Assembly (NCBI GenBank): GCA_026874595.1
Contig: CM049311.1
Location: 17,445,676-17,509,675, forward strand
Length of the DNA: 64,000 nucleotides
From: Sipunculus nudus
Lineage: Eukaryota > Annelida > Sipuncula > Golfingiida > Sipunculidae
Reading direction: 5' to 3'
Numbering within the stretch: the stretch's first letter is position 1; every line of letters starts with the position of its first letter. The notes under the pieces were generated by a model. That model saw only the letters and a program-made list of their open reading frames with translations, was not told where the DNA came from and ran no database searches. Below are positions 4,803-63,337 of the stretch, in pieces. The position numbers and the translations under genes are program-made.

Positions 4803-5018
4803 AGGAAACTTGCCCTGATGAATTCGGACACAAATTCGACACCAGAGCGAATGCATCATGTTACAAGTTCGTAATCGACATAAAAAGGCCATGGATTCAG
4901 GCACGTGACTACTGTGCGAGTCTGGGTGGAGACCTGGTGGCTGTAGAAACCGAAGAGGAACTGGATCACCTCACCAACGTAGCAGTGAGGGATCCCCGAC
5001 TGCTCGATCCTCAGGCAT
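4803..5018 (+). CDS. C-type lectin-like domain, N-terminal half (internal exon)
   Basis: This 216-nt internal exon encodes the first half of a CTLD, an extracellular recognition fold. The acceptor is a pyrimidine-rich TTTTACAG and the donor is GTAAGT. The frame opens with two bases completing a codon and closes one base into the next, so both junctions are phase 1. The translation starts ETCPDEFGHKF and contains Cys at about residues 3, 19 and 37, the helix motif W-x-x-A-x-x-Y-C (PWIQARDYC) and the LGGDLVAVETEEEL segment typical of the end of helix 2. NASC is a possible N-glycosylation site. The second half of the fold is at 8886-9098 in the matching phase. No start codon or signal peptide belongs to this exon, so at least one 5' exon is missing. 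Family assignment is secure; the specific lectin and its ligand cannot be named. Confidence 0.88.
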
Positions 5019-8885: not shown

Positions 8886-9098
8886 CGTTTTGGAGTTCCG
8901 GTACCGATGAAGACGTAGAAGGGGAGTGGAGGTGGGCATCATCCGGAGGTCTGGTGAATGGTAGCCTGCCGGGTATTTATAACGTGTTGGGTAGCACTTC
9001 GCTGAACTGTTTATTTATGTACTGGTCTACAACTTCCAGCACCTGGGGTGATGGTTTCTGTCCTTCGGGCACCTACCAAATTTGCGAAATAGCACTCG
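8886..9098 (+). CDS. C-type lectin-like domain, C-terminal half (internal exon)
   Basis: This 213-nt exon completes the CTLD begun at 4803-5018. The acceptor is ATCTTCAG and the donor is GTTAGT; both junctions are phase 1 and the joined frame is open. The product reads FWSSGTDEDVEGEWRWASSG, the usual W-x-x-G-x-x-D region with E-G-x-W-x-W. It goes on to the conserved Cys of the long loop (LNC), then TWGDGFC and QICEIA, the last disulphide-bonded strand. The EPN or QPD triplet that sets mannose or galactose specificity is absent, and the WND motif is replaced by WGD, so canonical calcium-dependent sugar binding is doubtful. NGS is a second possible N-glycosylation site. The paired exons give a CTLD of about 143 residues, a normal size. 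The stop codon just after the donor sequence is read only if splicing fails. Confidence 0.87.
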
Positions 9099-10013
9099 GT
9101 TAGTTGTAAACCATTTCCACTTTTCAAGGCATTATTTTAGTGATTTCTTGGGGCCTTGTTTTTTTTACCTTCTCGCTTGATTTCTTTTGTAATTATTATT
9201 TTTACATAAAAGTATCCCCTGTGTAGTTAAACCGTACAAAAATATTAACCCTTAAACAAAAAAGGCCCCAATTTCGAAAGTAAGAATAATCCCTAGTTCC
9301 TAGATCCAGTATGTTTAACAGGAAAAACAAAATGTCTCAGTGCGTATCAGTGTGTATAAAAAAACAAGATCAGCTTGTTTATATTAAACGAGGGCGGTGT
9401 ACTCACTATCCTCCTATATAACTTTAGTTGCACAAATATTGTTCTATATGTACCACGTTACAATTGTACTTTACAATACTGAATTCTGCTATTGAATACT
9501 ATTTGTAAGAAATATTTACACGTTGTTTGTCGGTTTATCATAATACCATGTAGTAAAAGATATAAATTGCTTATATATATGCCAAGTTAGTCGATAAATC
9601 ATCCTTACCTTTGCAACATTTTATCGTGCATTCTTTTAGGGGTGGATTTTAGAATGGGGGGGGGGGGGTCAAATAGCGACGTCGCGAAGGACAGACGGGG
9701 AGAGCATGGTAGAGGATGCGCCCCTATGATGGTGTAAAAATGATCAGGATGCTTAAGCTGTAACAATGCAGCCTGGAACAGTTTTTCCTTTATGTCGGTA
9801 TTTGGCCTGAGCTTGAATGTTTTATTTTACGGGATTTTAGATGATAAATAGGGTTTATTCGTCCCTAGACTGTTAAAAACTTTTAGTTATTATTATTTTT
9901 ATGAAATCTGCATGTGTTGTAAATTTAGGTGTATCATAATATCAAGATGATATAATTGAAACGTATTAGTGCAAGTTTAAAGTCTCCAAAGGTATATAAA
10001 TACATATGTATAC

Positions 10014-30968: not shown

Positions 30969-30983
30969 AGGTCACAGTGACCT
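30969..30983. promoter_or_regulatory. AGGTCACAGTGACCT, vitellogenin-type ERE core
   Basis: This unit has CAG as spacer, giving the same core as the classical vertebrate vitellogenin response element. It is followed by the repeat's usual AGTTTCAGG. Function is untested. Confidence 0.5.
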
Positions 30984-34853: not shown

Positions 34854-34975
34854 GTATCGCTTAGCTTAGCATAGTCCTGGAGATCAAGCACGTATTGTTA
34901 AGTTGACTTTGTCTCCGCATCCGCATCGCGTGGGGTCCACAGAAGGCGTAGAATGCGCATAGGACCTCTTACAAC

Positions 34976-37869: not shown

Positions 37870-40200
37870 ATGCTTAATGAAGAGTTTCTGTTCTTAATTT
37901 CCGGCTTTCAGCCCATATTCCGCTGCTGCCGTCATATCTCTTGACCATCCTTGGCCTATAATACGATCCCATGAATACCAAAAAAAAAAAAACTGTGCAC
38001 ACTTCCAGAGAAAAATGTATGGAAAGTCTGTCATGCAGGTGTGTTGCCTTTGAAGTCTACAGCATTTATGTTACCAAAGGAACCGGTCCAGACCCACGCT
38101 GACATGGAAGCATTCTCACTGATTTACGACCGCACTGACACTTGGGTTCCCTAAACCTACATTGACATCCTGATCTGATACTTCATATTAATAAATTAAA
38201 TAAGTCACAGCTCTCTATGGAATTTCCGCGAGCCCCTAGTTTTTGTTTCTTTCATGTGTCTTATAACCCTTTCCAGGTCATTACAAACATACCAAGGTGA
38301 CAAACACCCTGAAAATTTGACTTTTTTTTACACACTGCGTACTGATATTTGATTTTTTTTTCTGGGGCAACTTTGCATTGGTTTATGGATAATAACTTTC
38401 CTATTTTACACGGAAAGTGTATAGTTTTGGCATCAATGGCAATCGATGAACGTTGGCTACAAAATGAAATATGGTATGATGTCACAGACTACAATACGTG
38501 TTTGCCTAATATATATTCCATGTCATGATTTATCTGTTATCTTTAAGCCCTCTTACGATTATTCTAAGATATATACGGATGTACCCCTCTTGTGTGGATC
38601 TCCCCTGAAGAGTATAACCCTCCTTCAAGATTGAGACTCTTTTAGATATACTGGGTGAAAGTCTCTATCGTGCCCTGGGGAAAACAGCCTATTAAGAGAC
38701 CCCCCCCCCTACTTTAAGCTGACCACTGAACCGTCCACATGTTGTTTAAACTAAAGTTGACCGTAAAGGCCACAATAGATAACTGTAAACTGGTTCTTGT
38801 TTATTTTTCTTGTGAATATTTTACTGGGGCACACGAGACAAACTAGAAAACAGTTAGAAAACAGAGACACAGCTAGTATCCAGATGGGCCCTCTGAGCGG
38901 TTACCTAAGGATCATTTAGCTGTGCGTCGCAAGTCAGAGAGTGGACTCATGTACTGTTTTAAAGTGACATATTGTTGGGCAACTTCTATGATCATTTGAA
39001 ACATTTTAAAGTTCTATTTAAGCTCGTGCATGAGTATTTAACAAAGAGGAAAGTAGTGTACTACAGAGAAGTATTTTGCTGCTACCAAAATCCATCTCGT
39101 GTTTCTGCTCATCTACCAATGGCTCAACTACCAGTGGTGCTTTACCTGTGAGGACCAGGAACACGGATTTAGTATCTGGAGTTCCTGTTTGACCCTACCA
39201 TATCACTCAGTTTATATGGTGAGCCCTTTTTTATATGCAATACTATTCATAGGAAAATTATCCAGAACTGTCTATTATTGTCATATAATTGTTAATTAAT
39301 GTTTAATTGTACTTGATTTTAAATACAGTAAATGTCCATAAATAGGACGCGATTGTAATTGGCGTCACATATGTAATTAAAGGAGTAAAGCTTTGCTTTT
39401 ATTCAGTGTTGTTAGAGTAAAAACTAGTAACTCTAAAATCAAATATTAAGTTAGGTTTTTTTTATTCTTCCAGTGCGGCATTCCTGAAATATTCTACTGA
39501 CCCTTTTGGTCTGTCGTCAGTTGAGGTCACGTCTTGAGAGGGGAGGACACCCATAGCCAATCACGTGTCTATTTAATATTAAGATGAAATACAATAATAA
39601 AGATCTTTTTTGTTATCCGTCTTTATCTGCTTTGTATGAATTTGCTGTGATACTGTGCTATAAAATATCATTAAGGCATGAAAGAACCTGGGGCAACGAA
39701 ATGTATGTTGTTTGAAAGACCTAAGGTTGAATCCTTGACATATATTGGCCTTAAAGAAGAACATGTGTTCATTTTGAGGCCAAGGAGGTACAAATTCAGT
39801 GAAACCAAGATCTCAGAGATGTGTTGAGATTTGCAAAAGCTATAAAGCAAAAGACACTGTGAAGACGATATTTATGCTTGCGTGTACATGCTTGTTTAAT
39901 GTGTGCTATTTAGCTTAATTTGAGAACCTATTGTTAAATATGCATATACAGTTGTGCTGACAGAATTTTTGAACACGTCTAGACTCATAATTGTGCATAA
40001 ATCTACAAATATGACTTTGTCATTTTTAAGGAAAATTTAGGGATAGGGATAGAACAATGGCTCCAAAGAGGCTGTGAGAGAGCCCCATATAGCAGACACA
40101 ACGCCATTTTTTTCGAAATTTAACAGATAAGAAATGGGCTCAAAATTGAACACGTAATCATGTTCTCTCTTACAATCATTGTAATGCATCATGATTATTG
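37870..40200. other. Intronic DNA, nothing recognised
   Basis: AT-rich with short homopolymer runs (poly-A near 37981, poly-C near 38701). No coding or repeat structure that I can support. Confidence 0.5.
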
Positions 40201-40218
40201 CTTTTACATATTACAGGC

Positions 40219-40351
40219 CATATTAAATTGGGATATCGGATTTCAGTGTACGGAAGGAGGTTTGATTCCAGAGGCTTAAGCAGCGTCGGGAGTGGTGCCG
40301 TCCTATCTGGTTCCGGTTTAGCTGGTTCCGGTGGTTCAGGTTGGTGTCATG
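40219..40351 (+). CDS. Possible Gly/Ser-rich exon (weak candidate)
   Basis: After a reasonable acceptor (CTTTTACATATTACAG) an open frame in phase 1 runs through a Gly/Ser-rich stretch (SVGSGAVLSGSGLAGSGGSG) with a GGTTCCGGT-like nucleotide repeat. A GTTGGT sequence near 40351 could act as a donor and would again be phase 1; otherwise the frame runs to a stop at about 40401. The composition would suit a flexible linker between the CTLD and the stalk. The donor is poor and the sequence has no recognised homologue, so this may be a chance open frame over a minisatellite. Confidence 0.2.
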
Positions 40352-41059
40352 ATCAAAAAGAATTCCAATTAATAATGTATTTAGTGACAACTGATTTATA
40401 AGAGAAACGAGCATATTCACGTTGATATCATTTTCGGGTCAGAAAAGGTATATGTCAAGGTAAGTGAGTAAAGGTAATTTGTAGAAATGCAAATTTAAGT
40501 ATCCATCATGCAGCGGAAATTCCTTGCATTTCAAGAAATAGTTAGATCCGTTTCCAAAATATTGAAGCTTGCTTGTATTTAAACGCTTGTGAATGGCTGC
40601 AGATGGGGTTGTCTACATTGTGTTAAAAAAAATTTCCATAACCAGAGAATCTGGAAAATAAACTGCAATGTACTGAACGAGTTGTATGGGCAATTTTATA
40701 AACATAACCTCAAAGACGTGTGCACAACTGTTAAACAAACTTGATTGGAACAGGATACATGTATGCAAATTAACGCACAAAATGTGGCGAAGGTTTCAGG
40801 TGAAAAGATCCTTAGAGTATGTAGTAAGGAATTGGCTTCCATTTTTAATCGATTATATCAGGCTTCACTTTACACAATGATTCTACGGACCATTTGATAA
40901 ACCTCTAAAGTCATTCATTTTGCTAAAAACAAGACCCCTGGTGATTCCACACAACCAAATGTTCCTCTGGGGAAACTAATGAATAGGAATGTTAATCAAA
41001 GAGAAGCAAGTTTGTAATGTTAATTAAGGTCAGTTCAAGAGAAATTCAAATTAATAAAT

Positions 41060-42599: not shown

Positions 42600-43259
42600 G
42601 TAAGTATTATGTTTAAAACAATTAACTTTTTACTCTCTCTTTTGATTCAGGTAGTTGTATTCAGTACTAGTTTCAAGTAAACCACAATGCCCGTTTTCAG
42701 TGTTTTATGCAGGTTGTAAGAACAGGTGAAGTGATCTTTTTCAAAAAGAGATTCTCTCAAGAAAATCTCTGTGATTTGTGCTTTTTAATAAATTTAATCG
42801 GAAATTAACAATATCCAATGCTTTTGGAAATTACTTGAGGTAGGTTTATTGCTTTTTCTGCTTAAGAAAGCAAAGAGGATAATAAGTGTAAAGTGGCACA
42901 GATTGATTCTCGGTCGAAACTACGACTTATGCTGCCCTTATTGATTCTTTTTTTGACTCACTAATAGTCGAAGAATGTCGACATAAAAATGTCGAAGAAA
43001 AATTACCACACCAGATCATTTTTGACAAAACAGTCCTTGAAATACAATTGCCTCATTTATGAACGGATCTTTGCGGATCAATGCATAAAAATATAGGGTT
43101 CTCACTATACTGGGGTAAAGTGGTATAAACTCTATTGTGTGGATAGTATTTTTTGTAGTTTATTTCAGGAAGTGTCAGAAAAAAGCCTTTCCCACAAGAT
43201 TATTTTGACAAAACTTACTTTTGTATAAAAACTGGTTGAAGATATATTACCCTAAAGCG

Positions 43260-43315
43260 GTCCCGATGACAAAACCACCAACGTGGCTCTTACCATAACC
43301 CCTGCAACAGCATGT
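43260..43315 (+). pseudogene. Decayed copy of the 60-nt stalk exon
   Basis: The sequence aligns by eye with the stalk exon, sharing the ACCACC...CGTGGCTC...ACCA core and followed by GTAAGC. In the phase required by the gene it meets a TAA near its middle and is 4 nt shorter than 60, so it should not be used. Downstream, the intron shares an 'AGCATTCTCTGATT..TGC' stretch with the region after 48348. This is a duplicated exon plus intron, not chance similarity. Confidence 0.5.
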
Positions 43316-44219: not shown

Positions 44220-45047
44220 TTATTTGCCCTTTATATCTGAGTGTACTACCCATATAAAACCCAGGTTTCTTACACATTTAGTTGCCTGGATAATATCATC
44301 ACCAATCTTTACTCTAAGATCCTGCACTCTCTTAAGATTAGTTTTGGTACCAATCATAACAACTTCAGTCTTTTCTTCGTTCAATTTAAGTGTGTTTACC
44401 CTCATCCATGATCTAATGGATGATATACACTCTTCTAATCCAGAAACAGTCTCATGAATGTTTATTTTGTCCTTCGGATCAAATGAACAGTATAACTGCT
44501 GATCGTCCGCGTAACCATTAAAGTTTATATCATATTTCCTGCAGATATCCCCTAGGGGACTGATGAAACGTGTAAAAAGAAAAGGGCCCAGAATCGAACC
44601 CTGCGGTGACCCGTACTTAATAAACTCCTCTGATGAAAACAATCCGTTTATAACCACTTTTTGTTTTCTATTAGTAAGGTATGATCTCAGCCATGAGAGA
44701 ACAGTACCTAAAACTCCAAACCGATATTTCAGATGATTAAGCAACAAGTCATGAATCAACGTGTCAAAAGCGGCTGATAAGTCCAGCATAATAAGACAGA
44801 GCACCCTTCCTGTATCTACTTCCTGATAAACATTGTTCATCACATCAAAGAGAGCCGTCTCAGTACTCCTATTCCTGGTATATGGTGATTGATATTTCTC
44901 CTTGTTTCCAGTTTTCTTGGCATGCGATATAATCTTATTACAGGCCGCTTTTTCAATTATTTTACCAAGAAATGGTATATTCGACACAGGTCTAAAATTT
45001 GTGTATTCATTAGTGTTTAATCCAGCCTTATTCAGAAGAGGGCGCAC
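44220..45047 (-). pseudogene. LINE reverse transcriptase domain
   Basis: A 275-codon open frame with the RT blocks in order: NFRPVSNIPFLGKIIEKAAC, RNRSTETALFDVMN, LIMLDLSAAFDTLIHD (motif A, first catalytic Asp), YGSPQGSILGPFLF (motif B), NGYADDQQLYCSF (motif C) and LNEEKTEVVMIG (motif D/E). Motifs A and C are intact, so this domain decayed late. The frame ends early at ...GFIWVVHSDIKGK, where the C-terminal part continues in another frame from 44277. Confidence 0.9.
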
Positions 45048-45135
45048 TATAACTACTTGAGATCTTCAGGGAACACTCATTCACTCATTGATTTATTGAC
45101 GGTTAAACAAATAATAAGGGTTACGTCCACAATGT

Positions 45136-45597
45136 TTATTTAAGGAGATGTGAAAGAAACGGGTCCAGCTCACAGCTCTTAGTAGCCGGGCTACTAATAA
45201 GTTCCTTAGTTTGTTGAGGGTCTGTGGTTGCAAAACAGTAAAATTTCATCTGAGTACCATATTCCGCTTCAATGTAGAGGTGGTCATCAACTCCTATTGG
45301 CAGACTGTTGAGTAAATTCATGATTTTCTCAATTTTTTCACTAAAGAACACATCAAAATTTATAGCAATATCTACATCATCACATATGGGAAATGTTGTT
45401 TCTTCCTTCCTGAACAGTAGTCTATTTACATGTTTATATACACCCTTATAATTAGATTTACAGGTGTTGAAAATCTCTTGGTGATATTCTCTGACTTTCC
45501 TGCAAACTGTCCGACTAAAATGCTTTCTCATTGTAGCAAATTCTTCCAAACTCTTTTGATTCTTCAGTCTTTTCCAAATACGTTCTTTTCGTCTCAT
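45136..45597 (-). pseudogene. LINE linker between endonuclease and RT
   Basis: An open frame rich in basic residues (MRRKERIWKRLKNQKSLEEF), then FFSEKIEKI and a CELDPFLSHLLK end, typical of the region that joins endonuclease and RT in CR1/L2 elements (the C-S-L-D-P-I-P-T block). About 90 bp with a shifted frame separate it from the RT. Confidence 0.75.
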
Positions 45598-45871
45598 AAC
45601 TGCCTTTTCTAATTTAGTTGTGTTGTGAAGCCAAGATGGTCTTTCCCATTTTGGTCCATTCTTTATCTTTTATTCTTTATCTCAATGGTGCTAGTTTATC
45701 AATGATCGAGGATAATGTCTCATTGCAGAACGTAGTCAGTCCACATGAATCCATATAAGTTTCAAATAAATCGATATTCTGAAGGTGAAGCTGAAGCACC
45801 GAATTGTCAATCTTTTTAATAGCCGTGTATTTGATTTCTTTTCCTGTTCTTATCTCTGTCTTACTACATCA

Positions 45872-48654: not shown

Positions 48655-48714
48655 GGGCCCCAACGACCACACTGGCCCGCACCGTGGCTCCAACCACAAC
48701 TCAAGAATCAACTG
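48655..48714 (+). CDS. Mucin-like stalk exon, copy 1 (divergent)
   Basis: A 60-nt exon between ATTCATCAG and GTAAGT, phase 1 on both sides. It encodes G-A-P-T-T-T-L-A-R-T-V-A-P-T-T-T-Q-E-S-T. Half the residues are Thr or Pro, as expected of a mucin-type O-glycosylated stalk. It is the most divergent intact copy, with Gly in place of the first Val, Leu-Ala-Arg in the centre and Gln-Glu-Ser at the end, so it is probably the oldest. The unit that follows it is longer than the others (2,779 bp to the next exon) because of an insertion. Confidence 0.75.
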
Positions 48715-49375
48715 GTAAGTTATATACCTGTCGTATTAAGTTCTAGTGAATCACTCCTTGATTCATGTAAATGGAAGACGATAGAATTATCCTCGTATTG
48801 AAAAATGTTAAGCATGTAGTTTGCAATCGTTTCAAAACAAAACAAATCTAGTTTTTTCCCTATGTATTGTTTTAAAAGTTCCTTTCTATTTTATGCAGAC
48901 ATTATGTAAGTAAAATTAATTTCAACGAACGCAAACGGAAGGGTATGGATTTTATGATCATTAACGGCCTGGTTCTTTGAATATCTTTGCACCTGAAATA
49001 GGATAGGTTGCTGCTTTCATTTAGCAGACAGAGGCAACAAAGGAATTCTCGAGTTTTGAATAATTATTGTTTCATTCAATTAGAATGTGCAAAATCCTTT
49101 TTATTTTCTTATTAATGTAACCCTGCTTCTTTGAATACTTAAATGGAGCCAAAATCAAGAGCTGCCAGGTTCACACAGAGTAGCCGGAGCTGGTAAGGAC
49201 TAAATATTCTCTTCAAGAGAATATATATAAACTGATGATTCACAACGTGTTGGTTATCGGCCAATATCTGTCCTAAATCATGTCTCCAAAACTGCCAAGA
49301 AAACAAGATTTGATTATACGTAATTTTCTCCGAGAGCACAAAAATATTATAAAATGTCAATTTGGATTGATACCA

Positions 49376-50266
49376 GACAAACGTTGCAGACAGACAAGAT
49401 AGCAAACCACGCTAATCTTGTTTTACTTACCTACTCTTTTCAGTATATAAACAATGTCTATATATGGTCACCTTAATATTTGTTCAACCAGGTTTATCCT
49501 CATATGTTTGAAATTCTCATTCCTTTAATAACAATTCTGAACTAAACTTGTTATTCTTATGTAGCATTAACAACACAACTGTATAAACTACATACTTGTA
49601 ATGTGTATTGATCTCATAATGACACTGTGATGCTAGAACTTGAAAGAAACCTTGGTTGTACCAAGTATGTGTTTGATTTGCAACTCATTGTCTAACTTAT
49701 TGCTAACCCACCAGATTGAATTTAGGTGCAAATATTTATGTTTAGGTATTACTAATGCATTGTCTAAATATAGAAACCATGCCTATATCATAAATTTGCA
49801 CCAGTTAATGCATTTAAACAAGTTTTTTTTTTATTTTTTATGCACTTAATTATCTTCATATAGATTTTGTGCGATATATGTATTTGTTTAACTCTCATTA
49901 TATTTTTTTCCCTGTTTTGATATGACATACAAAAGCTTTCCTATTTATACCTTTATAGAGTAAACTAATGCACATACATGTACGTACATATATATATGTG
50001 TGTGTGTATATGTTTATTTATAATATAAGTATCACAAAATGTCCGTGGCATGCATATAAGGCATCTCTACCTTTACCATACAAGTGATGGATCCCATAAC
50101 ACATTAAATGTACAAAAAAAATGCATATTCATTTTAAGTAAATGTTACTGCACTTAGTACTTGTGATATGACTATATATAAGGTGCTATTTATACCTACA
50201 CTTACTATACATTTACACACTTGAATGTTTATAAATGTCTACATATGCATTATATATATATATGTG

Positions 50267-50319
<53 letters not shown>

Positions 50320-50670
50320 TATCTCGTACATATGCTTCATACACACAAAGGTGTGTTTTCTAGCAAAAATATGCTAGTAAACAAGCACTTAAAGATTGCA
50401 CTGTTTATTAAATACCTGTTACTCTGCATTATATATTGTTTATACACTTATATACACTAATACACCCTATTTATATTCTCAAGCAAATAAGAGTTAGTGC
50501 ATATACACATGCCCTGGAGGCCGACATCGTGTAGGTATTACTTGTGATATAGTGTTATATGTAGTTACATGTAGTCACAGTACATATTGTGTATACACTG
50601 TAATATTGTTTTTCATGACTCCGTATACCTCAAAAGAGATCACTTGAGTTGAAATTAATTGTTATTATTA
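49376..50670. other. Insertion interrupting the first array unit
   Basis: The LINE relic of unit 1 can be followed to about 49375 and resumes near 50670 (TACAAGGAGATTGTACAGTG). The intervening 1.3 kb is absent from the other units. It is strongly AT-rich, includes a (TA)n run at about 50252-50316 and has no coding signature I recognise. It may be a non-autonomous transposon; terminal repeats were not identified. Confidence 0.6.
50252..50316. repeat. (TA)n microsatellite
   Basis: TA repeat with two TG interruptions inside the unit 1 insertion. Confidence 0.9.
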
Positions 50671-51324
50671 CAAGGAGATTGTACAGTGAATGAAAATTTA
50701 TATCTGTTCTGGGAGGCCCTGACCACGCGCTAACAGCTCCAAAATCGTAACAGCATGACCTAAAAACCTTTTATTCAAAATCCGCACTGCTCCTATGTAA
50801 ATCCCCGTGCTTACCAAAATTAGTTAGGAATCATTTAGCAAGTTTTGCGTATTTTGTTGTTTTTGTAGAACTCTACAAGGTTTTACATAATAGACTGTTC
50901 AAGTCAACAAAAGGTCATGACCCATAGATCACTTGTTATTTTTTTAGGAATTATATTTTATTTAACTTACTTAGCAGGAATTTTGACATTTGCAAACAGG
51001 AGCACTCCTTTTCTCCTTTAACGTTGAGCTTGATAGCATAATGATTAGAAATCGTTACATGATTGTCCCGCGGATTCTTGTCGCTGCTAAAATGTGGGAT
51101 TCCCATGCATTTTGTGCTCAGTGGCCTGCCTGATTTATGTAATCCCCTACAAAAAATATGAAGTTTCACAGAAATGAAGTGTAAATATTGCCTGGACACT
51201 GGTCCTGCCACAGGTTTTCCACGCGAGATGCTTGTAACTTATTTATGACTTGCAGTGCCAGCAAGCACTAAAAAGAGAACCGCAGCTCGTAAGGACTGAA
51301 AGTTCTAATAAGTGGCGGCGGCTT

Positions 51325-51338
51325 GGGGGGGGGGGGGG
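51325..51338 (+). repeat. Poly-G run ahead of the stalk exon acceptor (one per unit)
   Basis: Each unit carries an uninterrupted G run about 80-110 bp upstream of the stalk exon. Lengths as printed are 14, 11, 8, 12, 14, 13 and 15 for the runs near 51325, 53244, 55235, 57220, 59206, 61193 and 63176. It is the most variable site between otherwise near-identical units. Confidence 0.85.
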
Positions 51339-51433
51339 TGGAGCAAAGGCAATTTGAAATATCAATTCTATAAAAAAAATTGGATGCCATGTGTTCAATA
51401 AAACATGTTCTTTTTATGTATATTATTCTACAG

Positions 51434-51493
51434 TGGCCCCAACGACCAAACCGGCCTCCACCGTAGCTCCAACCACATCTTCAGAGACAACTT
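51434..51493 (+). CDS. Mucin-like stalk exon, copy 2
   Basis: A 60-nt exon after ATTCTACAG, ending CAACTT before GTAAGTT. It encodes V-A-P-T-T-K-P-A-S-T-V-A-P-T-T-S-S-E-T-T. The last base is T where the other copies have G, so the split codon with the next exon becomes TTG (Leu) rather than GTG (Val). Lys at position 6 and Ser at 17 set it apart from the recent copies. It is intermediate between copy 1 and copies 3-8. Confidence 0.8.
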
Positions 51494-53340
51494 GTAAGTT
51501 ATATACCTGTCTTATTCGGCTCTAGTAAATCCCTCTCTGATTCATGTAAGTTTAAGACGGTAGGGTCATCCCTGTATAGAGGAATATTCTGCATGTAGTC
51601 TGCAATCGCTTCAAAACACGACAATCTGGATCTATTAAACGTAATTTTCTCCGACAGCAAAAAAAAATTATAACATTTCCATTTGGATTTATACAAGGAG
51701 ATTCTACAGTAAATGAACTAGCAGACATTTTTTCATCTGTTATGTGAGACCTAGATATGAGATTATTGTTGTGTTTTGTGAAAACTATAAAGCTTTAAAA
51801 TAATATGGCATAAAGGAATCTTACTTAAGATAAAGCGAATTGATAAAAAATGACACATTTCTTTTACGGTTTAAATATTACCTACACAATGGGCAACAGC
51901 AAACCTTGACCCGGGATGGGCGTTTTGACTGTGGTATAATAAAGGGGGAGTGCGGAAGGGTACATTCTTGAGAACGATTTTATTTTTCATATATGTGTAT
52001 TAACGACATAGTTGATTTTTGTCATGTAATATAAGACTTTTCGCAGACGTACAAAACTTTGTCAAATTGTCCAACACTATTTCTATTATGAGGTGTGGTT
52101 TATGGTAAAAAAAAGTGTGGGCAGATTAGTGTCTAGTGATGTTTATTCCGGAAAGTCCTTAAGCTATGGACATTTCGCATTCACTGACCATTTAAATCCA
52201 GCTTTGTCATTCTCTGGTGTTATAATGCCTTATACAAATGAACAAATGCCTCAGTATACACTTTCGGCACGATTATACATGGGCTTGTAACATTTAAGAA
52301 GTATTAAAGAAAGTATACAAAAGAACTGAGGTATTGAACAAAATTAAGTACCCACCTGTAATACTAACAATAGAACTAATGAATAAATCATTTGTATTGC
52401 TTATATCAGGATATGGAAGTATCATATGGACTAATAAAACAAAACGACAGATTCAAGAAAATTGGAGAGGTCCAGTTATATGCAACCAGAATTGTTAGGG
52501 GGGCACTTAATGGAACCAGTAATCGGAAAATGTATAATGAACTTTGATGTGAGAACTTGCAGGATCTTAGAAAAAAATCTCAGTAGTTGGCATGATTATA
52601 TCAAATAATCCATTTGTTTGCTCCAAACTACTTGACACAGTATATCCAAACCCTTTTTACAAACCTGTGCAGTATCCCCTACGAAACAGCCATGATTTGA
52701 ATTTTTTCAGATGTTTAACATGTCTGTCCACGAAATCGTTTATTCCACATACATGTCGTGTCTAGAATAGTCTCAAAGTTCATTGAAACTGCTCAAGGAT
52801 CGCATTATTCAAGATAATTAAAATAGAGTGAAAAGATAATCCAGTCACCACAATTTCATATGGAAAAGAAAATTAGTAATACAACATGCAACAGTAAGAA
52901 TAAAATGCTGTGCTCTTCACTTTTATTTCCTTTGAAGAAGATGACAGGTAATCTATTGAGCTTGATAACATAATGATTATAAAAAGTTTTAGGATCGTCC
53001 CGCGGATTTTTTTATGCTCAAATGTGGGTTTCCCGAAAGTTTGTGCTCCCTGGCCTGCGTGATCTCTTTTATCCCATCCAAGAACATTTGGAGTTTTAAA
53101 AAAAATGTAGTGTAAATATTGCTTGCACACTTGTCCTGCCACAGGTTTTTCCGCGTTAGTTGATTGTAAATTATTTATGATTGGCAGTGCCAGCGAGCAA
53201 TATAAAGAGAACCGCTGCCAGTAAGGACTCAATGTTCTTATATGGGGGGGGGGGAGAAAGGCAATTTGAAATATCAATACTATAAAAATGTAATGCCATT
53301 CTATTTAATAAACATGTCCTTTATGTTTATTATTCTTCAG

Positions 53341-53400
53341 TGGCCCTAACGACCACACCGGCCTCTACCGTGGCTCCAACCACATCTCCAGAGACAACTG
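53341..53400 (+). CDS. Mucin-like stalk exon, copy 3 (consensus type)
   Basis: The first copy of the consensus form. Acceptor TTATTCTTCAG, donor GTAAGTTATA. With the split codon supplied by the previous exon it reads VALTTTPASTVAPTTSPETT, 20 residues with nine Thr, three Pro and two Ser and no aromatic residue or Cys. Such repeats form extended O-glycosylated stalks that hold a lectin head away from a surface or matrix. Copies 4 and 6-7 are identical at the exon level. Being 1-1 symmetric, any number can be spliced in without a frameshift. Confidence 0.83.
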
Positions 53401-53584
53401 GTAAGTTATATACCTGTCTTTTATGGCTCTAATGAATCCCTCTCTGATTCATGTAAATTTAATACAATAATGTCATCCCTGTAAGGAGAAATATACAGCA
53501 TGTAGTGTGCAATCGTATCAAAACAAGACAAACTGGGTCTATCCGATTCCTATATCTGTCCTAAGTTGTGTCTACAAAACTGCT

Positions 53585-54815
53585 TAGAAAACCATTTTAA
53601 CTTAAACGTAATTTTCTTTGAGAGCAACAAAACATTAAAAAAAATTTCCGTTTGGATTTATACAAGGAGATTCTACAGTAAATGAACTAACAGACATTTT
53701 TCATCTGTTCTGTGAGCTCCTAGATAATGGGATGGACGTTTATGTTGTTTTTTTTTTTGTGATATATATATATTAATCTTTCAAAAGAATATGGCATAAA
53801 GGAATTTTACTTCAGATAAAGAGAAATGATCAAAATATATGACACATTTCTCTTATGGTTAAATGATAACCTACACAATGGGCAACAGCGAACCTTGACT
53901 TGAGATGGGTGTTTTGACTGTGGTATAATAAAGGGGGAGTGCAGAAGGGTACATTCTTGAGAACGATTTTATTTTTCATATATATGTATTAACGACATAG
54001 TAGATTTCTGTCATGTTATATAAGACTTTTCGCAGACGTAAAAAACTTTGTCAAATTGTCCGAAACAATTTCTAATATGAAGAGTGGTTTATGTTCGAAA
54101 AAAAGCGTGGTCAGTTATTGTTAAGTGAAGTTTTTTTCCGGCAAAAACAAAAGCTATGGACATTTCGCATTCACTGACCATTTAAATCCAGCTTTGTCAT
54201 TCTCTGGTGTTATAATGCCTTATACAAATAAACAAATGCCTCAGTATACACTTTCGGCACGATTATACATGGGCTTGTAACATTTAAGAAGTATTAAAGA
54301 AAGTATACAAAAGAACTGAGGTATTGAACAAAATTAAGTACCCACCTGTAATACTAACAATAGAAATAATGAATAAATCATTTGTATTGCTTATATCAGG
54401 ATATGGAAGTATCATATGGACTAATAAAACAAAACGACAGATTCAAGAAAATTGGAGAGGTCCAGTTATATGCAACCAGAATTGTTAGGGGGGCACTTAA
54501 TGGAACCAGTAATCGGAAAATGTATAATGAACTTTGATGTGAGAACTTGCAGGATCTTAGAAAAAAATCTCAGTAGTTGGCATGATTATATCAAATAATC
54601 CATTTGTTTGCTCCAAACTACTTGACACAGTATATCCAAACCCTTTATACAAACCTGTGCAGTATCCCCTACGAAACAGCCATGATTTGAATTTTTTCAG
54701 ATGTTTAACATGTCTGTCCACGGAATCGTTTATTCCTCATAAATGTCGTGTCTGGAATAGTCTCAAAGTTCATTGAAACTGCTCAAGGATCGCATTATTC
54801 AAGATAATTTAAATA
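53585..54815 (+). mobile_element. Jockey-like LINE RT relic (one per array unit; unit 3 shown)
   Basis: On the + strand broken frames give FGFIQGDSTVNELTDIFHLF (N-terminal RT), a degraded G-V-P-Q-G-S-like GVQKGTFLRTILFFIYMY, IRLFADV (from F-A-D-D-T), SGYGSIIWTK, and PLRNSHDLNFFRCLTCLSTE with CRVWNSLKVH at the 3' end. The order and spacing match a jockey/BovB-type ORF2 that has lost its 5' half and large internal pieces. Copies sit at the same place in every unit (for example 55570-56800, 57560-58790, 59550-60780, 61540-62770), so one insertion was amplified with the exon. Confidence 0.8.
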
Positions 54816-55328
54816 GAGTGAAAAGATAATCCAGTCACCACAATTTCATATGGAAAAGAAAATTAGTAATACAACATGCAACAGTAAGAATAAAATGCTG
54901 TGCTCTTCACTTTTATTTCCTTTGAAGAAGATGACAGGTAATCTATTGAGCTTGATAACATAATGATTATAAAAAGTTTTAGGATCGTCCCGCGGATTTT
55001 TTTTATGCTCAAATGTGGGTTTCCCGAAAGTTTGTGCTCCCTGGCCTGCGTGATCTCTTTTATCCCATCCAAGAACATTTGGAGTTTTAAAAAAAATGTA
55101 GTGTAAATATTGCTTGCACACTTGTCCTGCCACAGGTTTTTCCGCGTTAGTTGATTGTAAATTATTTATGATTGGCAGTGCCAGCGAGCAATATACAGAG
55201 AACCGCTGCCAGTAAGGACTCAATGTTCTTATATGGGGGGGGAGAAAGGCAATTTGAAATATCAATACTATAAAAATGTAATGCCATTCTATTTAATAAA
55301 CATGTCCTTTATGTTTATTATTCTTCAG

Positions 55329-55388
55329 TGGCCCTAACGACCACACCGGCCTCTACCGTGGCTCCAACCACATCTCCAGAGACAACTG
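55329..55388 (+). CDS. Mucin-like stalk exon, copy 4
   Basis: Identical in sequence to copy 3 and placed 1,988 bp after it, with the same acceptor and donor. The surrounding unit is also almost identical to that of copy 3, so this pair is among the most recent duplications in the array. Confidence 0.83.
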
Positions 55389-57317
55389 GTAAGTTATATA
55401 CCTGTCTTTTATGGCTCTAATGAATCCCTCTCTGATTCATGTAAATTTAATACAATAATGTCATCCCTGTAAGGAGAAATATACAGCATGTAGTGTGCAA
55501 TCGTATCAAAACAAGACAAACTGGGTCTATCCGATTCCTATATCTGTCCTAAGTTGTGTCTACAAAACTGCTTAGAAAACCATTTTAACTTAAACGTAAT
55601 TTTCTTTGAGAGCAACAAAACATTAAAAAAAATTTCCGTTTGGATTTATACAAGGAGATTCTACAGTAAATGAACTAACAGACTTTTTCATCTGTTCTGT
55701 GAGCCCCTAGATAATGGGATGGACGTTTATGTTGTTTTTTTTTGTGATATATATATATTAATCTTTCAAAAGAATATGGCATAAAGGAATTTTACTTCAG
55801 ATAAAGAGAAATGATCAAAATATATGACACATTTCTCTTATGGTTAAATGATAACCTACACAATGGGCAACAGCGAACCTTGACTTGAGATGGGTGTTTT
55901 GACTGTGGTATAATAAAGGGGGAGTGCAGAAGGGTACATTCTTGAGAACGATTTTATTTTTCATATATATGTATTAACGACATAGTAGATTTCTGTCATG
56001 TTATATAAGACTTTTCGCAGACGTAAAAAACTTTGTCAAATTGTCCGAAACAATTTCTAATATGAAGAGTGGTTTATGTTCGAAAAAAAGCGTGGTCAGT
56101 TATTGTTAAGTGAAGTTTTTCTCCGGCAAAAACAAAAGCTATGGACATTTCGCATTCACTGACCATTTAAATCCAGCTTTGTCATTCTCTGGTGTTATAA
56201 TGCCTTATACAAATAAACAAATGCCTCAGTATACACTTTCGGCACGATTATACATGGGCTTGTAACATTTAAGAAGTATTAAAGAAAGTATACAAAAGAA
56301 CTGAGGTATTGAACAAAATTAAGTACCCACCTGTAATACTAACAATAGAAATAATGAATAAATCATTTGTATTGCTTATATCAGGATATGGAAGTATCAT
56401 ATGGACTAATAAAACAAAACGACAGATTCAAGAAAATTGGAGAGGTCCAGTTATATGCAACCAGAATTGTTAGGGGGGCACTTAATGGAACCAGTAATCG
56501 GAAAATGTATAATGAACTTTGATGTGAGAACTTGCAGGATCTTAGAAAAAAATCTCAGTAGTTGGCATGATTATATCAAATAATCCATTTGTTTGCTCCA
56601 AACTACTTGACACAGTATATCCAAACCCTTTATACAAACCTGTGCAGTATCCCCTACGAAACAGCCATGATTTGAATTTTTTCAGATGTTTAACATGTCT
56701 GTCCACGGAATCGTTTATTCCTCATACATGTCGTGTCTGGAATAGTCTCAAAGTTCATTGAAACTGCTCAAGGATCGCATTATTCAAGATAATTTAAATA
56801 GAGTGAAAAGATAATCCAGTCACCACAATTTCATATGGAAAAGAAAATTAGTAATACAACATGCAACAGTAAGAATAAAATGCTGTGCTCTTCACTTTTA
56901 TTTCCTTTGAAGAAGATGACAGGTAATCTATTGAGCTTGATAACATAATGATTATAAAAAGTTTTAGGATCGTCCCGCGGATTTTTTTTATGCTCAAATG
57001 TGGGTTTCCCGAAAGTTTGTGCTCCCTGGCCTGCGTGATCTCTTTTATCCCATCCAAGAACATTTGGAGTTTTAAAAAAAATGTAGTGTAAATATTGCTT
57101 GCACACTTGTCCTGCCACAGGTTTTTCCGCGTTAGTTGATTGTAAATTATTTATGATTGGCAGTGCCAGCGAGCAATATACAGAGAACCGCTGCCAGTAA
57201 GGACTCAATGTTCTTATATGGGGGGGGGGGGAGAAAGGCAATTTGAAATATCAATACTATAAAAATGTAATGCCATTCTATTTAATAAACATGTCCTTTA
57301 TGTTTATTATTCTTCAG

Positions 57318-57377
57318 TGGCCCTAATGACCACACCGGCCTCTACCGTGGCTCCAACCACATCTCCAGAGACAACTG
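57318..57377 (+). CDS. Mucin-like stalk exon, copy 5 (Thr to Met variant)
   Basis: Differs from the consensus by a single C to T change that turns ACG into ATG, so the start reads V-A-L-M-T-T. Copy 8 has the same change, which suggests shared descent or gene conversion between non-adjacent units. The change falls at a CpG, so independent deamination is also possible. Confidence 0.82.
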
Positions 57378-59305
57378 GTAAGTTATATACCTGTCTTTTA
57401 TGGCTCTAATGAATCCCTCTCTGATTCATGTAAATTTAATACAATAATGTCATCCCTGTAAGGAGAAATATACAGCATGTAGTGTGCAATCGTATCAAAA
57501 CAAGACAAACTGGGTCTATCCGATTCCTATATCTGTCCTAAGTTGTGTCTACAAAACTGCTTAGAAAACCATTTTAACTTAAACGTAATTTTCTTTGAGA
57601 GCAACAAAACATTAAAAAAATTTCCGTTTGGATTTATACAAGGAGATTCTACAGTAAATGAACTAACAGACATTTTTCATCTGTTCTGTGAGCCCCTAGA
57701 TAATGGGATGGACGTTTATGTTTTTTTTTTTGTGATATATATATAAATCTTTCAAAAGAATATGGCATAAAGGAATTTTACTTCAGATAAAGAGAAATGA
57801 TCAAAATATATGACACATTTCTCTTATGGTTAAATGATAACCTACACAATGGGCAACAGCGAACCTTGACTCGGGATGGGTGTTTTGACTGTGGTATAAT
57901 AAAGGGGGAGTGCAGAAGGGTACATTCTTGAGAACGATTTTATTTTTCATATATATGTATTAACGACATAGTAGATTTCTGTCATGTTATATAAGACTTT
58001 TCGCAGACGTAAAAAGCTTTGTCAAATTGTCCGAAACAATTTCTAATATGAAGAGTGGTTTATGTTCGAAAAAAAAGCGTGGTCAGTTATTGTTAAGTGA
58101 AGTTTTTTTCCGGCAAAAACAAAAGCTATGGACATTTCGCATTCACTGACCATTTAAATCCAGCTTTTTCATTCTCTGGTGTTATAATGCCTTATACAAA
58201 TAAAAAAATGCCTCAGTATACACTTTCGGCACGATTATACATGGGCTTGTAACATTTAAGAAGTATTAAAGAAAGTATACAAAAGAACTGAGGTATTGAA
58301 CAAAATTAAGTACCCACCTGTAATACTAACAATAGAACTAATGAATAAATCATTTGTATTGCTTATATCAGGATATGGAAGTATCATATGGACTAATAAA
58401 ACAAAACGACAGATTCAAGAAAATTGGAGAGGTCCAGTTATATGCAACCAGAATTGTTAGGGGGGCACTTAATGGAACCAGTAATCGGAAAATGTATAAT
58501 GAACTTTGATGTGAGAACTTGCAGGATCTTAGAAAAAAATCTCAGTAGTTGGCATGATTATATCAAATAATCCATTTGTTTGCTCCAAACTACTTGACAC
58601 AGTATATCCAAACCCTTTTCACAAACCTGTGCAGTATCCCCTACGAAACAGCCATGATTTGAATTTTTTCAGATGTTTAACATGTCTGTCCACGGAATCG
58701 TTTATTCCTCATACATGTCGTGTCTGGAATAGTCTCAAAGTTCATTGAAACTGCTCAAGGATCGCATTATTCAAGATAATTTAAATAGAGTGAAAAGATA
58801 ATCCAGTCACCACAATTTCATATGGAAAAGAAAATTAGTAATACAACATGCAACAGTAAGAATAAAATGCTGTGCTCTTCACTTTTATTTCCTTTGAAGA
58901 AGATGACAGGTAATCTATTGAGCTTGATAACATAATGATTATAAAAAGTTTCAAGATCGTCCCGCGGATTTTTTTATGCTCAAATGTGGGTTTCCCGAAA
59001 GTTTGTGCTCCCTGGCCTGCGTGATCTCTTTTATCCCATCCAAGAACATTTGGAGTTTTAAAAAAAATGTAGTGTAAATATTGCTTGCACACTTGTCCTG
59101 CCACAGGTTTTTCCGCGTTAGTTGATTGTAAATTATTTATGATTGGCAGTGCCAGCGAGTAATATACAGAGAACCGCTGCCAGTAAGGACTCAATGTTCT
59201 TATATGGGGGGGGGGGGGGAGAAAGGCAATTTGAAATATCAATACTATAAAAATGTAATGCCATTCTATTTAATAAACATGTTCTTTATGTTTATTATTC
59301 TTCAG

Positions 59306-59365
59306 TGGCCCTAACGACCACACCGGCCTCTACCGTGGCTCCAACCACATCTCCAGAGACAACTG
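59306..59365 (+). CDS. Mucin-like stalk exon, copy 6
   Basis: Consensus exon sequence, 1,988 bp after copy 5, with intact splice sites. The preceding unit has small differences from units 3-4, for example a C to T in the sequence just upstream of the acceptor region (GTTCTTTATG). Confidence 0.82.
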
Positions 59366-61292
59366 GTAAGTTATATACCTGTCTTTTATGGCTCTAATGA
59401 ATCCCTCTCTGATTCATGTAAATTTAATACAATAATGTCATCCCTGTAAGGAGAAATATACAGCATGTAGTGTGCAATCGTATCAAAACAAGACAAACTG
59501 GGTCTATCCGATTCCTATATCTGTCCTAAGTTGTGTCTACAAAACTGCTTAGAAAACCATTTTAACTTAAACGTAATTTTCTTTGAGAGCAACAAAACAT
59601 TAAAAAAATTTCCGTTTGGATTTATACAAGGAGATTCTACAGTTAATGAACTAACAGACATTTTTCATCTGTTCGGTGAGCCCCTAGATAATGGGATGGA
59701 CGTTTATGTTGTTTTTTTGTGATATATATATAAATCTTTCAAAAGAATATGGCATAAAGGAATTTTACTTCAGATAAAGAGAAATGATCAAAATATATGA
59801 CACATTTCTCTTATGGTTAAATGATAACCTACACAATGGGCAACAGCGAACCTTGACTCGGGATGGGTGTTTTGACTGTGGTATAATAAAGGGGGAGTGC
59901 AGAAGGGTACATTCTTGAGAACGATTTTATTTTTCATATATATGTATTAACAACATAGTAGATTTCTGTCATGTTATATAAGACTTTTAGCAGACGTACA
60001 AAACTATGTCAAATTGTCTGAAACAATTTCTAATATGAAGAGTGGTTTATGTTCGAAAAAAAGCGTGGTCAGTTATTGTTAAGTGAAGTTTTTTTTTTCC
60101 GGCAAAAACAAAAGCTATGGACATTTCGCATTCACGGACCATTTAAATCCAGCTTTTTCATTCTCTGGTGTTATAATGCCTTATACAAATAAAAAAATGC
60201 CTCAGTATACACTTTCGGCACGATTAAACATGGGCTTGTAACATTTAAGAAGTATTAAAGAAAGTATACAAAAGAACTGAGGTATTGAACAAAATTAAGT
60301 ACCCACCTGTAATACTAACAATAGAAATAATGAATAAATCATTTGTATTGCTTATATCAGGATATGGAAGTATCATATGGACTAATAAAACAAAACGACA
60401 GATTCAAGAAAATTGGCGAGGTCCAGTTATATGCAACCAGAATTGTTAGGGGGGCACTTAATGGAACCAGTAATCGGAAAATGTATAATGAACTTTGATG
60501 TAAGAATTGCAGGATCGTAGAAAAAAATCTCAGTAGGTGGCATGATTATATCAAATAATCCATTTGTTTGCTCCAAACTACTTGACACAGTATATCCAAA
60601 TGCTTTTCACAAACCTGTGCAGTATCCCCTACGAAACAGCCATGATTTCAATTTTTTTCAGATGTTTAACATGTCTGTCCACGGAATCGTTTATTCCACA
60701 TACATGTCGTGTCTGGAATAGTCTCAAAGTTCATTGAAACTGCTCAAGGATCGCATTATTCAAGATAATTTAAATAGAGTGAAAAGGTAATCTAGTCACC
60801 ACAATTTCATATGGAAGAGAAAATTAGTAATACAACATGTAACATTAAGAATAAAATGCTGTGCCCTTCACTTTTATTTCCTTTGAAGAAGATGACAGGT
60901 AATCTATTGAGCTTGATAACATAATGATTATAAAAAGTTTCAAGATCGTCCCGTGGATTTTTTATGCTCAAATGTGGGTTTCCCGAAAGTTTGTGCTCCC
61001 TGGCCTGCGTGATCTCTTTTATCCCATCCAAGAACATTTGGAGTTTTAAAAAAATGTAGTGTAAATATTGATTGCACACTTGTCCTGCCACAGGTTTTTC
61101 CGCGTTCGTTGATTGTAAATTATTTATGATTGGCAGTGCCAGCGAGCAATATACAGAGAACCGCTGCCAGTAAGAACTCAATGTTCTTATATGGGGGGGG
61201 GGGGGAGGAAAGGCAATTTGAAATATCAATACTATAAAAATGTAATGCCATTCTATTTAATAAACATTTCCTTTATGTTTATTATTCTTCAG

Positions 61293-61352
61293 TGGCCCTA
61301 ACGACCACACCGGCCTCTACCGTGGCTCCAACCACATCTCCAGAGACAACTG
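61293..61352 (+). CDS. Mucin-like stalk exon, copy 7
   Basis: Consensus exon sequence, 1,987 bp after copy 6. The flanking intron shares variants with the unit of copy 8 (an extra G after the poly-G run, GTGCCCTTC in place of GTGCTCTTC), so copies 7 and 8 form a sub-family. Confidence 0.82.
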
Positions 61353-63277
61353 GTAAGTTATATACCTGTCTTTTATGGCTCTAATGAATCCCTCTCTGAT
61401 TCATGTAAATTTAATACAATAAGGTCATCCCTGTAAGGAGAAATATACAGCATATAGTGTGCAATCGTATCAAAACAAGACAAACTGGGTCTATCCGATT
61501 CCTATATCTGTCCTAAGTTGTGTCTACAAAACTGCTTAGAAAACCATTTTAACTTAAACGTAATTTTCTTCGAGATCAACAAAGCATTATAAAATTTCCG
61601 TTTGGTTTTATACAAGGAGATTCTACAATAAATGAACTAACAGACATTTTTCATCTGTTCTGTGAGACCCTAGATAATGGGATGGACGTTTATGTTGTTT
61701 TTTGTGATATATATATAAACTTTCAAAAGAATATGGCATAAAGGAATTTAACTTCAGATAAAGGGAAATGATCAAAATATATGACACATTTCTCTTATGG
61801 TTAAATGATAACCTACACAATGGGCAACAGCAAACCTTGACTCGGGATGGGTGTTTTGACTGTGGTAAAATAAAGGGGGAGTGCAGAAGGGTACATTCTT
61901 GAGAACGATTTTATTTTTCATATATATGTATTAACGACATAGTTGATTTCTGTCATGTTATATAAGACTTTTCGCAGACGTACAAAACTTTGCCAAATTG
62001 CCCGAAACAATTTCTAATATGAAGAGTGGTTTATGTTCGAAAAAAGTGTGGTCAGATTATTGTTTAGTGAAGTTTTTTTTTCCGGCAAATACAAAAGCTA
62101 TGGACATTTCGCATTCACTGACCATTTAAATCCAGCTTTTTCATTATCTGGTGTTATATTGCCTTATACAAATAAACAAATGCCTCAGTATACACTTTCG
62201 GCACGATTAAACATGGGCTTAAAACATTTAAGAAGTGTTAAAGAAAGTATACAAAAGAACTGAGGTATTGAACAAAATTAAGTACCCACCTGTAATACTA
62301 ACAATAGAAATAATGAATAAATCATTTGTATTGCTTATATCAGGATATGGAAGTATCATATGGACTAAAAAAAAAAAACGACAGATTCAAGAAAATTGGC
62401 GAGGTCCAGTTATATGCAACCAGAATTGTTAGGGGGGCACTTAATGGAACCAGTAATCGGAAAATGTATAATGAACTTTGATGTGAGAATTGCAGGATCG
62501 TAGAAAAAAATCTCAGTAGTTGGCATGATTATATCAAATAATCCATTTGTTTGCTCCAAACTACTTGACACAGTATATCCAAACCCTTTTCACAAACCTG
62601 TGCAGTATCCCCTACGAAACAGCCATGATTTCAATTTTTTCAGATGTTTAACATGTCTGTCCACGGAATCGTTTATTCCACATACATGTCGTGTCTGGAA
62701 TAGTCTCAAAGTTCATTACAACTGCTCAAGGATCGCATTATTCAAGATAATTTAAATAGAGTGAAAAGGTAATCCAGTCACCACAATTTCATATGGTAGA
62801 GAAAATTAGTAATACAACATGCAACATTAAGAATAAAATGCTGTGCCCTTCACTTTTATTTCCTTTGAAGAAGATGACAGGTAATCTATTGAGCTTGATA
62901 ATATAATGATTATAAAAAGTTTCAAGATCGTCCCGCGGATTTTTTTATGCTCAAATGTGGGTTTCCCGAAAGTTTGTGCTCCCTGGCCTGCGTGATCTCT
63001 TTTATCCCATCCAAGAACATTTGGAGTTTTAAAAAAATGTAGTGTAAATATTGCTTGCACACTTGTCCTGCCACAGGTTTTTCCGCGTTAGTTGATTGTA
63101 AATTATTTATGATTGGCAGTGCCAGCGAGCAATATACAGAGAACCGCTGCCAGTAAGGACTCAATGTTCTTATATGGGGGGGGGGGGGGGAGGAAAGGCA
63201 ATTTGAAATATCAATACTATAAAAATGTAATGCCATTCTATTTAATAAACATGTCCTTTATGTTTATTATTCTTCAG

Positions 63278-63337
63278 TGGCCCTAATGACCACACCGGCC
63301 TCTACCGTGGCTCCAACCACATCTCCAGAGACAACTG
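63278..63337 (+). CDS. Mucin-like stalk exon, copy 8 (Thr to Met variant)
   Basis: Last exon in the window, 1,985 bp after copy 7, with the same V-A-L-M start as copy 5. Its downstream intron continues to the window edge with no sign of the array ending. A membrane anchor, other domains or the stop codon would lie further on. Confidence 0.82.

What the first reader, a model, noticed from the sequence alone, without database searches (positions are those of the whole stretch)
48655..63337. A mucin-stalk exon amplified at least eight times in a C-type lectin gene
Eight 60-nt exons, each with its own acceptor and donor and each encoding 20 Thr/Pro/Ser-rich residues, sit at almost constant spacing. 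All are 1-1 symmetric, so copy number directly sets the length of an O-glycosylated stalk without disturbing the frame. Recent units are near-identical, the array is cut by the window edge, and the total may be far higher. This resembles a locus built for length polymorphism or alternative splicing of a defence or adhesion lectin.
Basis: partly seen in the sequence, partly recalled or inferred. Interest (0 to 1): 0.88.

Follow-up and report, generated by a model that had tools for sequence, protein, structure and literature searches.

The report
Amplified mucin-stalk exons in lectin genes
In this animal genome a small exon that codes for 20 threonine- and proline-rich amino acids has been copied many times inside several members of a C-type lectin gene family, so the number of exon copies probably sets how long a stalk carries the lectin head.

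Summary
The window holds eight 60-nt, phase 1-1 exons with splice sites. A ninth copy (57 nt) lies just past the edge, so the array has nine units and is not "far higher". Its lectin-domain (CTLD) exons lie past the edge too, 8-14 kb after the last copy; the CTLD exons inside the window belong to the upstream paralog. Spliced on paper, stalk and CTLD form one open frame ending in a stop in three tandem paralogs with 10, 2 and 9 stalk exons. End units correspond between paralogs; internal units are gene-specific, so arrays A and C grew independently after gene duplication. Two adjacent units differ at 3 of 1,925 intron sites, so copy-number polymorphism is likely but untested. Elsewhere, 69 of 70 tallied stalk exons lie 5' of a same-strand CTLD exon, at 13 loci with 1-11 copies (lower bounds except A-C). 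A 164-kb array on the same chromosome has at least 121 copies by pattern and no CTLD found near it. Selection on the stalk residues is not shown. No RNA evidence; 5' exon, species and O-glycosylation are undetermined. First reading partly supported: stalk and lectin gene yes; alternative splicing and defence untested.

The parts
48655..48714 (+). stalk exon 1 of gene C (GAPTTTLARTVAPTTTQEST), positional counterpart of copy 1 in gene A
51434..51493 (+). stalk exon 2 of gene C; last exon base T instead of G before GTAAGT
53341..53400 (+). stalk exon 3 of gene C (ALTTTPASTVAPTTSPETT after the split codon)
55329..55388 (+). stalk exon 4 of gene C, exon identical to exon 3; downstream introns of 3 and 4 differ at 3 of 1925 sites plus 3 gap openings
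57318..57377 (+). stalk exon 5 of gene C (one Thr to Met change)
59306..59365 (+). stalk exon 6 of gene C
61293..61352 (+). stalk exon 7 of gene C
63278..63337 (+). stalk exon 8 of gene C (same Thr to Met change as exon 5); exon 9 (57 nt) and both CTLD exons lie beyond the window at window coordinates 65261-65317, 73627-73842, 79543-79760
4803..5018 (+). first CTLD exon of the preceding paralog, gene B (phase 1 start, phase 1 end)
8886..9103 (+). second CTLD exon of gene B, ends in the stop codon
   Evidence: joined domain matches PF00059 at E 2.9e-12
43258..43313 (+). decayed stalk-like exon remnant upstream of the array (read by eye: stop in C, no AG directly before it in B, open in A)
40247..40339 (+). 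weak candidate for a 5' Gly/Ser-rich phase 1-1 exon of gene C, present in A and B; not proven coding

Best explanation
The array is the stalk-coding part of a functional C-type lectin gene (gene C), third in a tandem set of three paralogs. Shown from sequence: each unit (about 1.99 kb from the third copy on) carries one 60-nt phase 1-1 exon with splice sites, so adding or losing a unit lengthens or shortens the protein by 20 residues without shifting frame. The units sit 5' of a two-exon CTLD that ends the protein. End units are alike by position between paralogs, while internal units are gene-specific and, from copy 3 to 7, near-identical. Inferred: unequal crossing-over (or other duplication of whole units) after the gene triplication expanded and homogenised internal units separately in A and C. 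The exons are spliced in series, the Thr/Pro/Ser-rich product is O-glycosylated and acts as a stiff spacer, and copy number sets how far the CTLD is held from its anchor or partner. Because the youngest two units differ by about 0.2%, alleles with different unit numbers probably segregate.
For: Exon coordinates, frame and splice sites. In-silico splice of genes A, B and C gives one open frame stalk-CTLD-stop of 343, 183 and 323 codons. Joined CTLDs match PF00059 at E 1.5e-14 to 2.9e-12, 3 of 3, and PDB C-type lectins (gene B domain). Tree of 14 units: A4-A8 one clade (1.000); the seven C units separated from the A and B units (0.999); C3 vs C4 3/1925 intron differences. No exon gap in any of the 91 pairs of those units, against 23-32 gap openings in the intron of A-C pairs. 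Against the C17 paralog the exon differs at 7 of 60 sites, while alignable intron pieces differ by 19-28% (binomial p 0.031, 0.009, 0.003 for assumed intron rates 22, 25, 27%). 69 of 70 tallied stalk exons outside the giant array lie 5' of a same-strand CTLD exon within 100 kb, at 13 loci, none with an opposite-strand CTLD exon within 100 kb; the matched CTLD exon has no in-frame stop at 13 of 13 of these loci.
Against: No transcript was available. The start of the gene (signal or anchor exon) was not found. dN/dS over 21 stalk exons is 0.90 (bootstrap 0.56-1.54), and Thr-majority codons are not significantly more constrained than the rest (54 of 300 random codon sets as low), so purifying selection on the residues is not shown. 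A-C exon divergence (6-11 of 60) is little or not below intron divergence (about 14-16% for A4-A8 against C2-C8). CTLD dN/dS is 0.66-1.00. A decayed stalk-like exon lies upstream, so copies do die. The 69 of 70 tally is helped by CTLD genes being clustered on one strand, and used only the listed part of the matches.
Confidence: 0.72

Rival explanations
1. Neutral passenger: whole units multiply by unequal crossing-over because the locus is repeat-prone. The exons are spliced in and stay open because short Thr/Pro-rich exons tolerate almost any change, but stalk length has no selected role.
For: dN/dS near 1; exon divergence close to intron divergence between A and C; no significant Thr constraint; paralog B has two copies only; giant array with an out-of-frame third exon type.
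Against: Arrays of the same exon at several lectin loci, with different exon types in C6, C17 and C2; no frame-breaking indel in the 21 exons of A, B and C; exon more conserved than intron against C17.
Confidence: 0.3
2. Alternative splicing device: a variable subset of the symmetric exons is included, so one gene gives many stalk lengths.
For: All exons are 1-1 symmetric with similar splice sites; one copy in gene A has a GC donor and copy 2 in gene C a changed last exon base.
Against: Near-identical sites give no sign of regulated choice; no RNA data either way.
Confidence: 0.15
3. Non-coding satellite of 2-kb units in an intron, exon copies being unused pseudo-exons except at the ends.
For: No transcripts; a decayed copy upstream in C and B; third exon type of the giant array is 61 nt, out of frame.
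Against: All 21 exons of A, B and C are open and keep splice sites (a GC donor in one); same exon 5' of CTLD exons at 13 loci.
Confidence: 0.1
4. Assembly artefact: false duplication of one or more units.
For: Units 3 and 4 differ by only 3 of 1,925 intron sites.
Against: The other pairs of C units differ by 0.7-15%; gene A has its own clade of units.
Confidence: 0.04

Closest known systems
CLEC4M (L-SIGN) neck-repeat VNTR
   Same: C-type lectin whose C-terminal CTLD is held by a neck made of a variable number of 23-residue repeats, 4 to 9 copies in people (passages of PMC3261175).
   Different: There the VNTR is sequenced as a fragment of one exon, exon 4; here each repeat is its own exon inside a unit of about 2 kb. 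That neck is helical (title of PMC2971551 in the search listing) and involved in tetramer assembly; this stalk is Thr/Pro-rich.
LPA kringle IV-2 copy-number array
   Same: Genomic units of several kb holding exons and introns, repeated in tandem, so that copy number sets protein length (5.5-kb unit, 1 to more than 40 copies; passages of PMC4378929; the link to protein length is recalled).
   Different: Two exons per unit coding a folded kringle; here one 60-nt exon coding 20 low-complexity residues, at several paralogs.
DMBT1 (salivary agglutinin) copy-number variation
   Same: Pathogen-binding glycoprotein gene discussed with copy-number variation (search listing and start of abstract of PMC9038570 only).
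   Different: The repeated SRCR domain does the binding (recalled); here the repeat is the spacer and the CTLD is single.
Mucins with PTS tandem repeats
   Same: Thr/Pro/Ser-rich tandem repeats of constant length (recalled).
   Different: Vertebrate mucin repeats usually sit in one large exon (recalled); here every repeat is flanked by introns.

Membership tests
C-type lectin domain (PF00059) | profile match over the whole domain | tested here: met
   Joined CTLDs of A, B and C match PF00059 positions 2-106 of 107 at E 1.5e-14 to 2.9e-12, 3 of 3.
C-type lectin domain (PF00059) | six cysteines of the long form | tested here: met
   C at ETC, SCY, DYC, NCL, GFC, ICE in the gene B translation; assignment to the long form is recalled.
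Ca-dependent sugar-binding C-type lectin | EPN or QPD motif plus WND | tested here: not met
   Translations of A, B and C show no EPN or QPD; WGD in place of WND. Motif names are recalled. Sugar binding by other means is not excluded.
Mucin-type stalk | Thr/Pro/Ser-rich low-complexity repeats | tested here: met
   Gene C stalk 179 aa: 62% T+S+P, 37% T.
Mucin-type stalk | O-glycosylation | not testable with these tools
   Needs protein.
Length-polymorphic array (CLEC4M or LPA-like) | copy number differs between alleles | not testable with these tools
   One assembly only; differences shown only between paralogs (10, 2, 9).
Length-polymorphic array (CLEC4M or LPA-like) | unit carries a whole number of codons and symmetric exon phases | tested here: met
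   60 nt, 1-1, in 18 of the 21 exons of A, B and C; 57 nt, 1-1, in the three last copies.

The most novel reading that the evidence does not exclude
A lineage-wide system of length-coding exons: one 20-residue stalk exon family, spread through a large lectin gene family, has grown into arrays at ten or more lectin loci (independently in A and C by tree, and with exon types of their own at C17 and C2) and, 1.2 Mb from the window, into a 164-kb array of at least 121 copies. If spliced in series these would give stalks from 20 to over 2,400 residues, whose length changes by unequal crossing-over faster than the domain sequences do.
Probability: 0.4. Interest if true: 0.75.

Novelty: new variant of a known kind. 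Interest (0 to 1): 0.56.

Why it matters
Stalk length is a basic design variable of cell-surface receptors, and the best-known variable lectin neck (CLEC4M) is a repeat inside one exon. Here introns separate every repeat, and the same module forms arrays of different size at several paralogs of one genome, so the effect of copy number on stalk length, splicing load and expression can be compared gene by gene (1 to 11 copies tallied, and at least 121 in one array). It also gives a natural test of whether exon number is selected or drifts.

Tried and rejected
Looked for the 5' (signal or anchor) exon of genes A-C by conserved splice-bounded frames, conserved ATG to phase-1 donor with a hydrophobic core, a looser scan, and inspection of the best candidate, rejected by eye because it is not open in B. 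Whole-genome searches with upstream DNA mostly returned dispersed repeats; two C2 loci match window 39789-40625 and led to the weak Gly/Ser candidate.

Rejected the idea that the in-window CTLD is the array's own head: the order stalk then CTLD holds in A, B and C, and the in-window CTLD follows the two-copy array of gene B.

Rejected "far more units beyond the edge" for this gene. Followed the giant array past its last pattern match: a broken copy, a 57-nt copy, and then a frame that begins E-P-C-N-Q behind an AG, with only a sub-cut-off Pfam match; no CTLD was recognised in the 15 kb read there (L050 by tblastn; L051 by its frame list only).

The Thr-codon constraint test was not significant. 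An exact 38-nt exon/donor string was not found in the prokaryote genome collection, as expected. Window: no Rfam match at gathering score, no tRNA. The species was not identified; I made no dedicated search for it.

Paper searches for the same arrangement (11 listed, 12 of 3,655 listed, none, 6 listed, 4 listed) showed no title or abstract start that describes intron-separated mucin-exon arrays in C-type lectin genes. None of those papers was opened and the library holds open papers only, so this is not proof of absence.
Full report
WHAT IS THERE. The window is C6:17,445,676-17,509,675 of an animal genome of 1.43 Gb in 153 contigs. The eight exons of the finding are real, each 60 nt, open, phase 1-1, with AG before and GTAAGT after. 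They lie in direct repeats; from the third copy on the units are 1,985-1,989 bp long. The region on both sides was fetched. Scanning 264 kb showed that the array ends with a ninth copy of 57 nt at window coordinate 65261, 1.3 kb past the window edge.

THE GENE. tblastn with the two CTLD-coding exons found in the window gave three copies of the pair in the 264 kb. Order along the chromosome is: array of 10, CTLD (gene A); array of 2, CTLD (gene B, whose CTLD is the one inside the window); array of 9, CTLD (gene C, the array of the finding). The three genes align in collinear blocks over some 45 kb, most long blocks 79-92% identical. The last stalk exon ends in G, the CTLD exon starts AG at a ttttacag acceptor, the first CTLD exon ends with one base of a codon and joins the second in frame, and the second ends in a stop. 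Joining exons on paper gives open frames of 343 (A), 183 (B) and 323 (C) codons including stalk. The joined CTLD matches PF00059 at E 1.5e-14 to 2.9e-12, 3 of 3; that of gene B matches C-type lectins of the PDB such as mincle, dectin-1 and the low-affinity IgE receptor at E below 0.001. It lacks EPN/QPD and has WGD for WND (motifs recalled). The CTLD is at the C-terminus, so the stalk stands between it and an N-terminal part not found here.

HOW THE ARRAY GREW. First copies of A and C share the same unusual sequence (GA-TTTLARTVAPTTTQEST). Last copies of A, B and C share the same 3-nt deletion. Internal copies are gene-specific. In a tree of 14 full units, A4-A8 form one clade (1.000), and all seven C units separate from A and B units (0.999). 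C3 and C4 differ at 3 of 1,925 intron sites (plus 3 gap openings) and not in the exon; pairs among C3 to C7 differ by 0.2-3.2%; C2 and C8 are further off (6-15%). So the genes triplicated first and internal units multiplied afterwards, separately in A and C; end units escaped homogenisation. A decayed stalk-like exon lies upstream (window 43258-43313 in C; counterparts in A and B), so the process also leaves dead copies.

IS IT CODING. All 21 exons of A, B and C are open and phase 1-1; one has a GC donor. None of the 14 aligned units has an exon gap, while A-C intron pairs have 23-32 gap openings. Against C17 the exon differs at 7 of 60 sites and alignable intron pieces by 19-28%; p is 0.031, 0.009 or 0.003 for assumed rates of 22, 25 or 27%, and 19% (one 98-nt piece) was not tested. 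Against the giant array the exon with short flanks aligns at 70-84%, and intron only in two weak pieces of about 66%. Against this: dN/dS 0.90 (0.56-1.54) over 21 exons; no significant extra constraint on Thr codons (54 of 300 random sets as low); and A-C exons differ about as much as introns (6-8 of 60 for most pairs, 10-11 with C2; intron about 14-16% for A4-A8). The evidence fits an exon whose length, frame and Thr/Pro character matter more than its exact residues, but does not prove selection.

GENOME-WIDE. A 32-place pattern gave 229 + 71 matches with up to 3 mismatches, reversed control 1 + 1. The total of 300 is probably a cap: the tool calls the counts whole, but exact matches seen in L049 are missing from the listed exact matches. 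100 places were listed. Leaving out the 53 listed places of the giant array (47 remain) and adding 2 places and the 21 of A-C, 70 stalk exons were compared with 45 CTLD exons (those of the 67 with E up to 3.3e-11, 4 of them with an in-frame stop; 22 weaker ones dropped). 69 of 70 lie 5' of a same-strand CTLD exon within 100 kb, at 13 loci with 11, 1, 11, 7, 2, 7, 1, 1, 3, 4, 10, 2 and 9 copies; the exception is C6:19174759. Counts outside A-C are lower bounds. Because these CTLD genes are clustered on one strand, the agreement of strand is not fully independent evidence, and the two C2 loci with 7 copies look like duplicates of each other.

THE GIANT ARRAY. Two exon-end patterns with up to 1 mismatch matched 49 and 72 times, all at C6:16,137,402-16,301,275 on the + strand, controls 0; whole exons were read only in L048, L049 and L050. 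In the 10 kb of L048, 11 exon-like copies were seen: 8 open with splice sites and 3 of a 61-nt, out-of-frame third type with a GC donor; L049 holds the same two kinds (8 and 3, and one cut copy). Past the last pattern match come a copy with a broken donor and a 57-nt copy at C6:16,305,472, then a frame starting E-P-C-N-Q behind an AG. No CTLD was found near it, so which protein it serves is open.

READING. Most likely this is a lectin gene whose stalk length is set by the number of symmetric exon units and changes by unequal crossing-over. Shown: anatomy, phases, order, independent growth in A and C. Inferred: splicing in series, O-glycosylation, allelic length variation, biological role. It works like the CLEC4M neck VNTR (passages of PMC3261175) and the LPA kringle IV-2 array (passages of PMC4378929), but is not a member of either. 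The novelty is the intron-separated mucin module that forms arrays at many paralogs of one lectin family.

Noticed in passing
G000 C6:16137402-16301275 (L048, L049, L050): 164-kb array with at least 121 pattern matches to the end of the same stalk exon family, in higher-order repeats, with a 57-nt copy after it; no CTLD found nearby.
   Followed up: partly
window 13309-14196 (-): Two minus-strand frames with C-type-lectin-like residues (by eye), 79% and 73% identical to frames near C6:17331393-17333609 upstream of gene A; no Pfam match.
   Followed up: partly
window 51325, 53244, 55235, 57220, 59206, 61193, 63176: A poly-G run of 8-15 bases sits about 95-110 nt before each of stalk exons 2-8, not before exon 1; a possible instability point.
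   Followed up: partly
window 44220-45669 (-): Reverse-transcriptase frame (44220-45065, PF00078, E 6e-28) and an adjoining frame of a retroelement, a few kb upstream of the array.
   Followed up: no
window 34170-35563 (-): Frames of a retroelement, one integrase-like (PF00665, E 2e-4, below cut-off).
   Followed up: no
window 30778-31950 and 24974-25669: Tandem repeats of 157 nt (7.4 copies, 73% matches) and 344 nt (2 copies, 99%).
   Followed up: no
genes A, B, C CTLD exons: CTLD dN/dS between paralogs 0.66-1.00: fast protein change in the lectin head.
   Followed up: partly
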